Below, piece after piece: positions 6,454 through 63,248 of a DNA stretch of 64,000 bases; positions within the stretch are counted from its first letter, which is position 1, and each line of letters begins with the position of its first letter. The stretch covers positions 3,100,001-3,164,000 of the forward strand of contig OZ017752.1 of NCBI GenBank assembly GCA_963969365.1. The letters run 5' to 3'. The position numbers and the translations under genes are program-made. Under the pieces are notes generated by a model. The model searched no databases, was not told where the DNA came from, and saw only the letters and a program-made list of their open reading frames with translations. This DNA comes from Asterochloris sp. CNOR1. Its lineage: Eukaryota; Chlorophyta; Trebouxiophyceae; Trebouxiales; Trebouxiaceae.

Positions 6454-7540
6454 TCACCAGAAGGGGCACCATCCAATGTAGGCCTGGCACAAATTTTCGT
6501 GCGAGGTGGCCTGCTGGATGAGGCGCATGACTTGTATCTGCACAGTGTCGCTCTCTGTGGATCCTGTACACACAATGGAGATGTCTTCATTGCAGCTGAC
6601 TGGGCTTGATGTCACAGGTGGGTTGCGCAGATCTATGTGCAGACCCATGTGCGGGGAGGGCCAGTACTGCAAGCAGAGTACAGCAAAGCATCAGTCCAAT
6701 CAGCGGCTGATCAGCGGCTAGTGCATCTTGGGATGATCTTGCCGCCTGAATCCCCAGAAGTGTTGAGCAGGTCCACACAGTCATGCTGACTGTCTACTCC
6801 AGCTCGGAGGGGCTTGATCATCAGCAACAGCCAGCCTCTTCATGGACACCGCTGAGGCCCGCCGCCTTCTCTATGCAGAACAGCACATATCTCTCACTCA
6901 AAGCCACCTGCTCACCCACCCAGCAGGCTCATGTTGCTGCCTGAGCAGCCCAGCATAACCCTGCCGACAAACCCTTCAGTGCAACCTGAGACTGCCACGC
7001 ACTCAGTGCAGCCAGCAGCCCAGCCTGCAGGCTCCAGTTGCTGCTCAAGCTGAGGGTTCTGCCAGTAGCCTGTGTTGTTGTTCACCCGGCAGCTCAGCTT
7101 GCACGATGCAGCTGGCTGCCCAAGCTGAGGGTGCCTGCTGTTGGGTTCTGCCACTGCCCTGTGTTGTTGTTCACCCAGCAGCTCAGCCTGCCCTGTGCAG
7201 CTGGATGCCCAGGGAGACCTTGCCTGCTGTGGGGTCTCGCCATTGGCCTGTGTTGTTGCTCACCCGGCACTCCAATCCTGCAGGGTGTACCAGCTGCCAA
7301 GTGGACTATGGGCCACCCACCTAGCAGCCCGTCCTGCATGAAGTCCCGCCCTGTGAGCTTGTCGCTCATGCGCCGCATCACGGTGACAGCTCTCTCGTTG
7401 AGGACTTCATTGGCGTCCCCCATTTCGATGAGCCCATCCAGCGCGATGTGCAGCTCCTTCTCGCGAGCCTCCCGCCGGGGAAGCTGTTCGGCCGACGTCT
7501 GCTCCCTGGAAGTTGTGCTGGGCCCAGGCTTGTCCCCACC
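6454..7540 (-). other. TOR: TOR C-terminal linker and FATC domain
   Basis: Exon 47 (7321-7540) encodes EKELHIALDGLIEMGDANEV, LNERAVTVMRRMSDKLTGRD and FMQDGLL. The last exon (from about 6563, possibly from 6672, to the TGA at 6454) encodes DTVQIQVMRLIQQ and TSHENLCQAYIGWCPFW, the FATC motif needed for kinase activity. Exon 47 ends in phase 2 while the GTACAG acceptor at 6563 opens in phase 1, so an unplaced small exon or another acceptor lies in 6564-7320. That interval also holds copies of the exon 47 end and repeated bits reading NNNTGYWQNP / NNNTGQWQNP. Confidence 0.85.
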
Positions 7541-10500
7541 TGTACCCAGAGCGCCACTTAGTCAGTTACTCAGGTTCTTGAGCATGCAAACCCCTCCATG
7601 CAGCAGCTGGTTGGCTGCCTTCTGCTCCCTGGAGGCCCTGCTGGGCACAGGTTTGTCCACACCTGCATTCACAGCACAATCAGTCAATTATTCAGGTTCT
7701 GAAGCATGGCATCCTCCAAATGGGGCAGCTGCTCGGCTGCTTTGTGCTCCCTGGAGGCTGTGCTGGGCCTGGGCTTGTCCCTACCCACAGGAAACATTAG
7801 CTGGCCAAGCATTTTGTCTGCGGCCTCTGGCCGCAGCAGCTGCTCGTCTGCGTCAGGGGTGTCATGCTGGGGTCAGATCCCCGTACAGGGTGGTCAAAGT
7901 ACGAGCTCTGCTCAGCAGGCACTGCTCTGTGCATGCCTCATGACAAAATGCAGCGTGTTTGCTGCCAGCGGCCTCAGCCCATGACTTGCTGTGGTGACAT
8001 CAGTGCCTCCAGGCTCTGGCATGGGCATCAACTGGCTGACATCCAAGTGCTGGGTAACCAACTGCTGGGTCCCAAGTGCTGGCAAGTCACCATCATTTTG
8101 ATGAGAGCAAGCACCATGGCAGCCCACAGAGGTGCTTCCCAGCTGCGCCACCTGCCCCCCACCCTGGCTCAGGCTCGGCGTGGAAACCACTCAGCCAGAA
8201 CGGGCCATGAAGCCATCTGCTACCAGTGCCGTCCTGGATGGAGTGCTGTCAGCCACAGGACCTCTGCTGTGCACTGCCAGGCAGAGAAGCAGGCAACCCA
8301 CCTGCAGCCTCGACACAGAGGCCCCACATGCATTGCCTTGCCATCTACAGAGCATGCCTCAAAGCAGATGGCCTTGCCTGCCCCCGCAGGGAGACCCAAG
8401 CAAAGCCCCTGACCCACCTGAGCCGTCCTGGATGAAGTTGCTGTCAGCCACGCCGGCGTCGGTCGTGTTGAGCAGACGCCAGTTGATCAGGGGGTCGTGG
8501 ACAAAGGCCTCCAGCATGGCCATCACAGAGTCCTTGTTCTCCCGCAGGACGCGGACCACGTTCTCACACGTGTACCTGCAGGTGGGCATGCACACGCTCA
8601 GACCCTGTAATGCATGCTCACTGCATCAGCTGGGCTCCGCGCCGAAAGGTGCGCACCATGTTCTTGCACATGTACCTGCAGGTGGGTCCCCACAGGGTCA
8701 GGTTGGACTGTCTGGCTCTGCAATGCAAGCCCACAGCGTCAGACAAGCTCCAGTTTGATGGGTTCTGCAGCAAATGCCAGGCGCCAGGCGTGTGCTCAAG
8801 TGTTGCAAGGAGGCGCACCAGACTGTGGGCTGGCCCTAGCTTCCTGATTTGGGGCTGTCCAGACCTGGATACTGTTCAGCACGTCACATCTGACATGCTC
8901 TAGTCTGCCAAGTGCACCCAGCTTTGCGGACCTCTGTACTGTTTAACATGAAGAGGTGCATGACAGCCAGGATCAAAGTCTGCCACTGCAGCTCATGCAC
9001 TCATTCAAAATCCACTGGCCTTAAAGCTCTGCCCTGCCAGAGGCAGCCCTGCTGCATGTGCCGCCCATGCCTGCAGCACCTTGATCTTGTATGACTCTGG
9101 ACGAACCCACAATGCCGCCGTACCCACCTGAATGCTGCTGACCTTCAGGGCCCAGCAGCGCGCAACTCATCAGGTTCCTAAACTGGAGAGCGCACCATGC
9201 CGCTGTACCCACCTGTCTGAAGCTGCCCTGACAGCTGCTGACCTTCAGGGCCTGGCTGCGCATCCTGTACAGACCTCAGCAACACAGGCAGGACTCTGCA
9301 GCTCTGCCAGTGCACTGGGGCAACCCCTGAAGTCACACAGCAACCTCTGCCATGGACAACCCAAGCCATCAGCTGGCCCAGGACTCTGCAGCTCTGCCGG
9401 TGCACTGAGGGGCAACCCCTGAAGTCACACAGCAATCTCTGCCATGGACAACCCAAGCCATCAGCCGGCTTGGCCCCTGGCTTGATGGCCCTTTGTCATT
9501 GCTCCCGCTGTGCCCACCTGAAGCTGCCCTCAAGGCCGCTGAGCTCCACGGCCTGCACCCGCAAACCTCATAGCTGGGGCACCCCCAGAACTCAGCCCAC
9601 AATCCAGAGTTCTGTCCTGCTTCAGCCCACATAGACAGCCCCCACTGCAGACATGTCGCTGTGGTGCAGCAGTCCTCTCGGTCAAACAGTCTTGGTATCT
9701 GGTGTTATGCCGAGTATGTGCGCACCTAAAGTTGCCCTCTATGCCGCTGACTTCCATCGCCTGCACCATCATGCGCGTCAACCGGAAGGGCACGCGCTCT
9801 GGGAACTTCTCACGCAGCTGGCTGCAGAAACCAGTGAGAGAGGGTCTCAAGGGGTCTTCATGACAGCAGAAACCAGACAGGATAGCAGGCACACATGTTG
9901 AGGGCCTGCGGCCATGGTCTAGCAGACAACAGCCCCTGCCAACCAGACAGCCATCTTGTGAGTGAGGCAGGTAGCCCATGCAGAGACAGAAGCTGCCTGG
10001 GCAGGCATGAAAGGGCTCAAACCAAGGTGTGGCTTGATTTATCAGATGCGGGCTGGCAAAAGCCCTGGCAGCGTTTTGCCGGCGCCTCAAGCAGAGCTGC
10101 ATTCAACAGGCCTTGTAAATCAGGTTCAACTTCTTGCCAGTGTTAAATGGACACCCCGACAGGCAGTGCATGAGGGGGACAGAGGCTTCTCTGGGCGGGC
10201 AGCAGAAAGGCCGGACCAAGGTAGGATCTGTTCTATCAGATGCGGGCGAGCAGCAGACCTGGCAGTGCTTTGCCAGTGCCTCTCAGCAGTGCAGCAGGAG
10301 AATAGAGGAGCAGTCCTGCACGCCCACCTGGCCTCAAAGCAGTCGCCAAAGTCGATGTGCAGCAGCTTGCCGCTGTACCGGTCCAGCATGAGATTGGAGG
10401 GGTGGCGGTCGCCCAGGCCCAGCAGGTAGCCAACCTGCAGCAGCGACTTGACACCAATTAGGTCTTTAAGTATTGCTGCACTGGGTTCATGGCAGCAAGT

Positions 10501-61909: not shown

Positions 61910-63248
61910 TCATGTCAGTTCAAGAGCATCAGGCTGAGGCTGAGACGTCTGAAGCTCACCCTTGCTGCACCAGCTATTGATCAGGATAATGCCATAGGCA
62001 TCTCCAAGAATGTTCACAACTGTCCTGCACCGATCTAGCAGCCAGTCCAGAGCGAGCAGGATGGCGAGGTCTGAGGCGTACTGTGAGAGGTTGACTGCAC
62101 TGAGAACAATGAGCATGGTAACCAGGCCTGCAGAGGGGATCGCTGCTGCACCGACTGCTGCCAGGGTGGCTGTGCAGGCCACCACAAAAAGGTGGGGCAG
62201 TGTAAGGGCGACGCCATGAGCCTGCATTGTCAGCAATAAAGGTTTACGCCAGACTGCAAAGCTGCACATGACAAGAACTGCAGGCCTCAAACAGGTACGG
62301 CAGGGTGAGGGTGACACCATGGCAGGGCACACGCAGCAGGTGAGCCTCACATCAAAAAAGAGTTGCACAGGACAATGACCTTCTCGGAAAGGTCTTTGGC
62401 AACAGTGCTGCACAGGCGGGCCAGCATCAGAGCTACAGAGCAAAACTTTTCAGCAAGAAAGCAGCCCACCTGGGCAATAAAGATGACTGTGGTTGCCTCG
62501 TAAAGGGCAGTGCCTGACATGTTGATGGTGGCCCCCAGTGGCATCACAAACTTGATGATGCTGTCGCTGCACCCCATCTCGGCTGCGCAGGTCATGCTCA
62601 CCTGCAGCGCGGGCAGGATGAGTGATTGTGAAAACATGCAGACAGAGGCACACAGATGCTGACGCTAGGGAAATTGACAATGATAGATTTCTACATAACA
62701 GACGGCACAGAGGTGCCATGGGTAAGTCAGTGGCCAGTGAGGAGCTGCAGGCAAGCAACAGGCCACCAAGCGGCAGCTAAGGGTTGGAGCCTACACGTTA
62801 CCAGGCGGCCAGCAGCCCTGCTGGCAGCACGGCCATGCTGCTGCCGATGCCAGCCACCTCACCGCTGCCCTTCAGCACCATGCTTGCAAGATAAGAAGGC
62901 ATCCTGGCGGCAGGCATCCTGCTGAGCAGAGTCAGTCCGCATGTGGGTCCTCACCGGCAGCGCCGCCGTGCTGCTGCTGGTGCCGAAGCCCATGACGAGG
63001 GCCTGCGAGAACCCCCGCAGCACGGGCAGTGGGCCCTGCTTCGTGACGGCCCACAGCATGGCCGGCATGAGTGCTCCAGCCTGGATCAGCAAGCCGGCGA
63101 AGATGGTTGCCAGCCACAAGCCGAGGGCTGCCAGCGTGGAGCCCAGGTCGCAGGCGCGCAGCATGCTGGCTGCAATCAAGGAAGCGATGCCAACAGGGCT
63201 GGTCCACAGGACTCCCAACACCATCCTGCTGATGGCTGCATTGAAGAC
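61910..63248 (-). CDS. SLC1/DAACS dicarboxylate-amino acid:cation symporter, C-terminal half
   Basis: Three exons with clean phases: 62955-63248, 62470-62601 and 61910-62221, ending in TGA. They cover the conserved transport core: VFNAAISRMVLGVLWTSPVG (TM5-6 region), the HP1 serine-rich motif GFGTSSSTAALP, TM7 with PLGATINMSGTALYEATTVI, HP2 with GAAAIPSAGLVTMLIVL, and TM8 with LDWLLDRCRTVVNILGDAYG. The TM8 residues matching GltPh D394, R397, N401 and D405 are kept, so anionic substrate binding looks possible. The TM7 sodium motif NMDGT reads NMSGT here. The N-terminal TM1-4 exons should lie to the right and were not resolved. A decayed copy of the last exon's start (HGVTLTLPYLFEACS) sits at about 62281-62325. 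The family is found in bacteria, animals and some algae. Confidence 0.93.

What the first reader, a model, noticed from the sequence alone, without database searches (positions are those of the whole stretch)
7038..62325. Introns are littered with tandem echoes of exon edges that include the splice site
In at least five genes (TOR, K+ channel, Ran-binding, SLC1, the 169-aa gene) the intron next to an exon carries one to three decayed copies of about 25-80 bases covering the exon edge plus its acceptor or donor. I counted more than a dozen junctions. The copies are always local and direct, are on the gene's own strand and often keep a usable AG or GT. This looks like a genome-wide mode of intron growth by repeated local duplication across splice sites. 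It would supply decoy sites and raw material for new exons. It is not a transposon pattern: there are no ends, target duplications or shared sequence between genes.
Basis: partly seen in the sequence, partly recalled or inferred. Interest (0 to 1): 0.78.

Follow-up and report, generated by a model that had tools for sequence, protein, structure and literature searches.

The report
Chance local duplications straddling splice sites
In this green alga, short stretches of DNA are often copied next to themselves, more so in the samples near chromosome ends; because exons and introns are short, about a third of the copies happen to pair exon with intron and leave decoy splice sites in the intron, but nothing found here shows that splice sites are targeted.

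Summary
The echoes are real. Of 1134 exon edges tested with gene models trained here, 69 have a copy of the edge in the adjoining intron, against 4 for the reverse complement. In the window there are 21, in TOR, the K+ channel and SLC1, plus one weaker case in the Ran-binding gene. Of five loci searched in the genome, four occur once. 26 of 69 echoes keep the exact AG or GT.

(1) No targeting: of 167 duplication families, 52 pair exon or exon-edge with intron and 65 lie in intron; random placement predicts 52.3 and 67.1. (2) Uneven density: 16 of 680 edges in five interior samples, 53 of 454 in five chromosome-end samples, 19 of 123 without the window's block. Introns there are also longer (medians 310-354 against 205-268.5). 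(3) Introns without visible duplications are longer there too.

Best reading: ordinary recurrent small tandem duplication, denser near chromosome ends, with junction-straddling copies absorbed by introns. The best single case is an in-frame triple acceptor in TOR's kinase domain whose nearest copy is absent from two relatives.

The parts
11123..11347 (-). TOR kinase domain: 75-base unit (intron tail + acceptor CAACAG|GTGGAG + exon head) in three tandem copies; exon starts at 11156 (true edge by homology), 11231 and 11306 (upstream echoes), all in frame
   Evidence: acceptor scores 6.43, 6.55, 6.69 against a median of 7.7 for predicted acceptors
16723..17030 (-). TOR: four echoes of the acceptor-side exon edge at 16695 (16723-16766, 16793-16846, 16856-16878, 16966-17030)
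   Evidence: scores 43, 77, 31, 70
9509..9767 (-). TOR: exon 3' edge (9717-9767, ...AMEVSGIEGNFR) and its echo 9509-9559
   Evidence: score 57
8551..8686 (-). TOR: exon 5' edge with acceptor (8551-8586) and its echo 8651-8686
   Evidence: score 47
7500..7784 (-). TOR: exon piece 7500-7539 and echo 7745-7784
   Evidence: score 55
8228..8451 (-). TOR: exon piece 8422-8451 and donor-side echo 8228-8256
   Evidence: score 46
9112..9229 (-). TOR: piece 9197-9229 and copy 9112-9144; the predicted exon here is doubtful
   Evidence: score 36
14888..15071 (-). TOR: exon piece 15036-15071 and donor-side echo 14888-14923
   Evidence: score 37
17560..17751 (-). TOR: exon piece 17560-17597 and acceptor-side echo 17714-17751; CTGCAG|GC kept
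   Evidence: score 46
19891..20014 (-). TOR: exon piece 19891-19926 and echo 19979-20014
   Evidence: score 32
26835..27190 (-). TOR: exon piece 26835-26863 and echo 27162-27190; TTGCAG|CT kept
   Evidence: score 33
31434..31829 (-). TOR: exon piece 31434-31456 and echo 31807-31829
   Evidence: score 36
35971..36075 (-). TOR: exon piece 35971-35993 and echo 36053-36075
   Evidence: score 31
43897..44258 (+). K+ channel: exon piece 43897-43913 and echo 44242-44258
   Evidence: score 29
44887..44980 (+). K+ channel: exon piece 44887-44916 and echo 44951-44980
   Evidence: score 30
49272..49559 (+). K+ channel: exon piece 49523-49559 and acceptor-side echo 49272-49306; CTGCAG|GA kept
   Evidence: score 31
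49695..49944 (+). K+ channel: exon piece 49695-49728 and echo 49911-49944
   Evidence: score 33
52470..52649 (+). K+ channel: exon piece 52470-52504 and echo 52615-52649
   Evidence: score 30
53800..53998 (+). K+ channel: exon piece 53800-53848 and donor-side echo 53950-53998; CAG|GT kept
   Evidence: score 58
54409..54597 (+). K+ channel: exon piece 54409-54449 and echo 54557-54597
   Evidence: score 32
60003..60205 (+). Ran-binding gene: 60003-60029 across the donor after 60023, copied at 60179-60205
   Evidence: ungapped score 34
62173..62321 (-). SLC1: exon piece 62173-62218 and acceptor-side echo 62279-62321
   Evidence: score 35
62823..62984 (-). SLC1: exon piece 62956-62984 and donor-side echo 62823-62851
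   Evidence: score 33

Best explanation
The genome undergoes recurrent small local tandem duplication, placed without regard to exon-intron structure and denser in the sampled chromosome-end regions than in the sampled interiors. Shown here: copies are local and direct, 4 of 5 tested loci are single-locus, placement fits random, sampled ends have more. Inferred: copies arise by replication slippage, template switching or repair with small homologies, then unequal exchange within the array. A duplication that straddles a junction survives because splicing can keep using the outer copy; the inner copy (exon edge plus splice site) falls into the intron and decays. With exons near 120 bases, introns of 200-350 and median lags of 90-120, about 3 in 10 random duplications pair exon or exon-edge with intron, which alone yields the echoes of exon edges.
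For: Direct over inverted, shuffled and distant pairs. Random-placement test: 52 vs 52.3 and 65 vs 67.1 of 167 families, stable over thresholds. Four of five loci single-copy in the genome search. Exon-exon families keep the frame (lag divisible by 3 in 12 of 17) while intron-intron ones do not (22 of 65), as expected if selection only filters random events. Ends vs interior: echo rates 53 of 454 vs 16 of 680, non-overlapping over five places each; intron medians p=0.008; family density p=0.017 with overlap. The nearest copy of the TOR triple acceptor is absent from two relatives.
Against: Near ends, repeat coverage peaks in the last 20 exon bases (14.4% donor side, 15.9% acceptor side; intron bins 5.3-12.6%). 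One copy under coding constraint would remain recognisable longer and could give this peak; not simulated. Exon-exon families are not depleted (34 vs 25.1 expected), partly because the gene finder called echoes as exons. Relabelling those raises edge-intron families to z 1.7-1.8. The end effect rests on six ends and five interior places; one end (C4) has few repeats and no predicted gene.
Confidence: 0.75

Rival explanations
1. Junction-targeted duplication: transcription, R-loops or the splicing machinery make exon edges fragile, so that repair copies the edge with its splice site.
For: Exon edges have more copies in introns than exon middles (24 vs 4 of 318); coverage peak at the junction near ends; z 1.7-1.8 after relabelling echo-like exons.
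Against: Random placement predicts the observed shares; z 0.6-0.7 without relabelling. Among families at 90% identity or more, where differential decay matters least, 14 observed vs 12.1 expected.
Confidence: 0.12
2. Intron gain by tandem genomic duplication: each echo-bearing intron was itself born from a duplicated exon segment with a proto-splice site.
For: It also leaves exon-like copies in introns, and is documented in other eukaryotes (passages of PMC3443670 and PMC2891723).
Against: It predicts a lag equal to intron length; only 3 of 49 echoes are within 10 bases of that (read), one of them the TOR array, where the predicted intron is an artefact of the gene finder.
Confidence: 0.05
3. 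Dispersed elements or introners inserted into introns.
For: Introns with repeats are longer; one locus has a further copy 81 kb away.
Against: Four of five loci match only themselves; the copies are of the gene's own exon edge.
Confidence: 0.02
4. Assembly or gene-model artefact.
For: No independent assembly or RNA was available; the gene finder took some echoes in TOR for exons.
Against: Copies are mostly 76-96% identical, not identical; TOR exons align to mTOR and TOR2; a relative's record appears to carry copies of the same edge (by eye).
Confidence: 0.03

Closest known systems
Short local tandem duplications and minisatellite-like arrays (general knowledge, recalled)
   Same: Local, direct, head-to-tail copies that decay; arrays of 2-5 copies
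   Different: Here the arrays often include a splice junction, and density differs by chromosome region
Intron gain by tandem genomic duplication (PMC3443670; PMC2891723 for Drosophila; passages read)
   Same: Tandem duplication interacts with splice sites and the coding frame is saved by splicing
   Different: There a new intron as long as the duplication arises; here existing introns absorb copies, and the lag equals intron length in 3 of 49 cases within 10 bases
Subtelomeric and pericentromeric innovation centres in Tetrahymena (PMC6564038, passages read)
   Same: Chromosome-end regions richer in tandemly duplicated genes and in young genes with longer introns
   Different: There young LRR genes, 90-base exon arrays and a retrotransposon; here conserved genes such as TOR and no repeat family found at the loci tested
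Introner elements (recalled)
   Same: Repeated sequence in introns of a green alga
   Different: Introners are dispersed families; 4 of 5 loci here are single-locus

Membership tests
Local tandem duplication (slippage or repair type) | Direct orientation, short spacing, excess over inverted and distant pairs | tested here: met
Local tandem duplication (slippage or repair type) | Copies adjacent, lag equal to unit length | tested here: inconclusive
   Several pairs in the window have alignment length near the lag (for example 9289-9469, 11123-11347, 17547-17860), others are shorter than the lag (for example 9200-9254 at lag 305); not tested systematically
Local tandem duplication (slippage or repair type) | Small homologies at the breakpoints | not tested
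   No breakpoint analysis was made
Intron gain by tandem genomic duplication | Lag equals intron length; exon edges repeated at the opposite end of the intron | tested here: not met
   3 of 49 echoes within 10 bases of intron length (read)
Introner or transposon family | Same sequence dispersed in many introns | tested here: not met
   4 of 5 loci match only themselves, the fifth has one extra distant copy
Junction-targeted duplication | More junction-straddling copies than random placement gives | tested here: not met
   52 vs 52.3 of 167 families; z 0.6-0.7, or 1.7-1.8 after relabelling
Alternative acceptor use in TOR | Transcripts spliced at 11231 or 11306 | not testable with these tools
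   No RNA data were available here; frame and acceptor sequence are kept

The most novel reading that the evidence does not exclude
Chromosome-end regions of this alga form a compartment in which small tandem duplication is several times more frequent and introns of conserved genes are about half as long again. Junction-straddling copies there keep producing ready-made, sometimes in-frame, duplicates of splice site plus exon edge, such as TOR's triple acceptor with 25-residue steps, and some become expressed isoforms.
Probability: 0.3. Interest if true: 0.65.

Novelty: new variant of a known kind. Interest (0 to 1): 0.42.

Why it matters
It turns an apparent splice-site duplication machine into a testable neutral model: blind tandem duplication plus tolerance by introns. 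If the dependence on chromosome region holds genome-wide, the alga offers a natural contrast (ends vs interior) for asking how intron length evolves and whether decoy splice sites are costly. There is also a practical warning: echoes can lead a gene finder to call false exons, as happened here in TOR.

Tried and rejected
Self-BLAST of all blocks with a very loose E-value timed out and was replaced by an exact diagonal scan. The first gene-finder run merged neighbouring genes, so the gene-start cost was eased. Intron gain by duplication, dispersed elements and artefact were considered and disfavoured (see rivals). Kinase exon gaps were tried as an independent check of intron length: pairs were picked and computed by hand from the 150-odd listed rows and gave no clear answer (5 near-end gaps, median 423; 35 others, median 324; p=0.31); contig lengths were known for C1-C4 and C7 only, so some of the 'others' may also lie near right ends. 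ABC-transporter hits (22 matches) were too few and were not used. Visible duplications as the sole cause of long introns near ends were rejected. Related algae could not be compared at genome level; single protein records served instead. I first took P0140 for an independent record; its source column is '-', the tool's mark for a protein of the window itself, so it is not used as evidence.

Papers: passages were seen of PMC6564038, PMC8226300, PMC12712428, PMC2891723 and PMC3443670; none was read whole. Other papers were seen as search listings only. Searches listed no paper that by title or opening abstract describes splice-junction echoes concentrated near chromosome ends; the library holds only open-licence papers.
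Full report
What was checked. The window is bases 3,100,001-3,164,000 of contig 7 (3,293,012 bases) of a 56.4-Mb, 21-contig genome. The listed part of a search for TTTAGGG repeats shows them at both ends of C1 and the left end of C2; there are 1491 matches in all. I take it for a green alga from its genes and telomere repeat; the species was not established. I fetched 26 stretches of 10 kb: 20 of them form, with the window, five blocks of 264 kb in all, and six are single stretches; 324 kb together.

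Gene models. No annotation was at hand, so I wrote a generalized hidden Markov gene finder in C and trained it without supervision on the 264 kb. It converged on donor CAG|GTGAGC and acceptor TGCAG|G, with 36 genes, 581 exons and 545 introns. TOR was checked against solved structures: one part matches yeast TOR2 (319 bits), the FRB-kinase part human mTOR (650 bits). The check exposed errors: exons 9518-9552 and 8622-8675 are copies of a neighbouring exon edge, and exon 11019-11231 starts 75 bases too early, inside an echo.

The echoes exist. In the training set, 24 of 487 donor-side and 25 of 486 acceptor-side exon edges have a copy in their own intron; length-matched introns of other genes give 0.3 and 0.4, shuffled introns 0.9 and 0.4, the reverse complement 3 and 1. 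With six more stretches it is 69 of 1134 against 4. In the window there are 21. At the projected position 26 of 69 keep the exact GT or AG (15 of 36 and 11 of 33), against 5.7% and 7.3% by base frequency. At TOR junction 16695, four echoes lie within 335 bases upstream of the exon.

They do not look like a repeat family. Five echo loci were searched in the whole genome: four matched only themselves; the fifth matched its local partner at 70% and a 145-base place 81 kb away on the opposite strand at 80%. That tool scores only its best candidates, so rare extra copies could be missed.

They are not aimed at splice sites, as far as this sample tells. I reduced the local direct pairs of score 34 or more to 167 non-overlapping families and asked how often each would fall into each class if slid uniformly over its own block. 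Edge-intron classes: 52 observed, 52.3 expected; intron-intron 65 vs 67.1; exon-exon 34 vs 25.1; with intergenic 16 vs 22.5. Other thresholds (30-50) and a second scoring scheme give z of 0.6-0.7; relabelling short exons that pair with another exon gives 1.7-1.8. Against my reading: near ends, coverage is highest in the last 20 exon bases (14.4 and 15.9%, against 5.3-12.6% in intron bins); in interior samples the edge bins (4.7 and 3.9%) are exceeded by some deeper intron bins (up to 7.4%). A copy with one side under coding constraint stays recognisable longer, which could give such a peak without targeting; this was not simulated.

They are concentrated in the sampled chromosome-end regions. 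Echo rates are 34/331, 2/29, 11/35, 1/25 and 5/34 at five ends and 4/174, 4/154, 5/130, 2/184 and 1/38 at five interior places. The ranges do not overlap, also without the window's block (4 vs 5 places; exact two-sided p = 2/126, my arithmetic). A sixth end (C4, 3.93-3.94 Mb) had no predicted gene and few repeats. Duplication families per 10 kb: 7.1, 7.0, 16, 6, 11, 4 vs 1.0, 2.5, 5.5, 2.0, 5.0 (p=0.017, ranges overlap). Intron medians: 350, 354, 334, 351, 310 vs 219, 235, 268.5, 205, 231.5 (p=0.008). 'End' means 109-213 kb from the right end of C7 and about 135-150 kb from five other ends; no gradient was seen inside the C7 block. An independent check with kinase genes was inconclusive.

Do duplications make introns long? 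At most in part. Introns touched by a detectable duplication are longer in both groups (medians 394 vs 323.5 near ends, 324 vs 212.5 in the interior), but introns without one are also longer near ends (p=1.5e-9 over 150 and 304 introns, which are not independent). Old duplications decayed beyond recognition, other insertions or weaker removal remain possible.

History. At the TOR kinase-domain junction three tandem copies of intron tail, acceptor and exon head (75-base unit, 93% matches) keep the reading frame. mTOR and the relatives' records P0020 and P0021 place the true edge at 11156; their 31 and 39 residues upstream of it contain no copy, which covers the place of the nearer echo but not of the farther one. 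Use of the upstream acceptors would add 25 or 50 residues. At junction 16695 the relative's record P0141 seems, by eye, to carry two further copies of the same edge upstream of it, and P0142 no clear one. Reading the relatives' upstream residues as unspliced intron is an inference. So duplication at this gene appears to go on in the group, with copies of different age.

Verdict. The claim of a genome-wide mode of duplication across splice sites is not supported: placement fits random within error, and density depends on the region sampled. What deserves a second look is that regional effect and the in-frame TOR acceptor array.

Noticed in passing
window 39270-39748 and 39945-40441: A 500-base local duplication (70%) containing an exon of an unannotated small gene (LEQMEADAWREY...; decayed copy LTQLEADAWWDT...), with a further 145-base match (80%) at C7:3221180-3221325 on the other strand.
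   Followed up: partly
window 32904-33034: An 18-base unit repeated 7.3 times at 99%, much more homogeneous than the decayed echoes around it.
   Followed up: no
L027 (C4:3930001-3940000): Ten kilobases near a chromosome end with no predicted gene and a lower GC of 0.534; nature unknown.
   Followed up: no
L024 (C1:4330001-4340000) and L026 (C3:140001-150000): The densest local duplication of the samples: 27 and 28 pairs at score 34 or more in 10 kb, with 29.1% and 23.8% of predicted exon bases covered; coding repeats or wrong exons not told apart.
   Followed up: no
window -6478 to 2109 (minus strand, partly in the left flank): A predicted gene whose protein carries HCSAGIGRTG near its C terminus, as in tyrosine phosphatases (motif recalled).
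   Followed up: no
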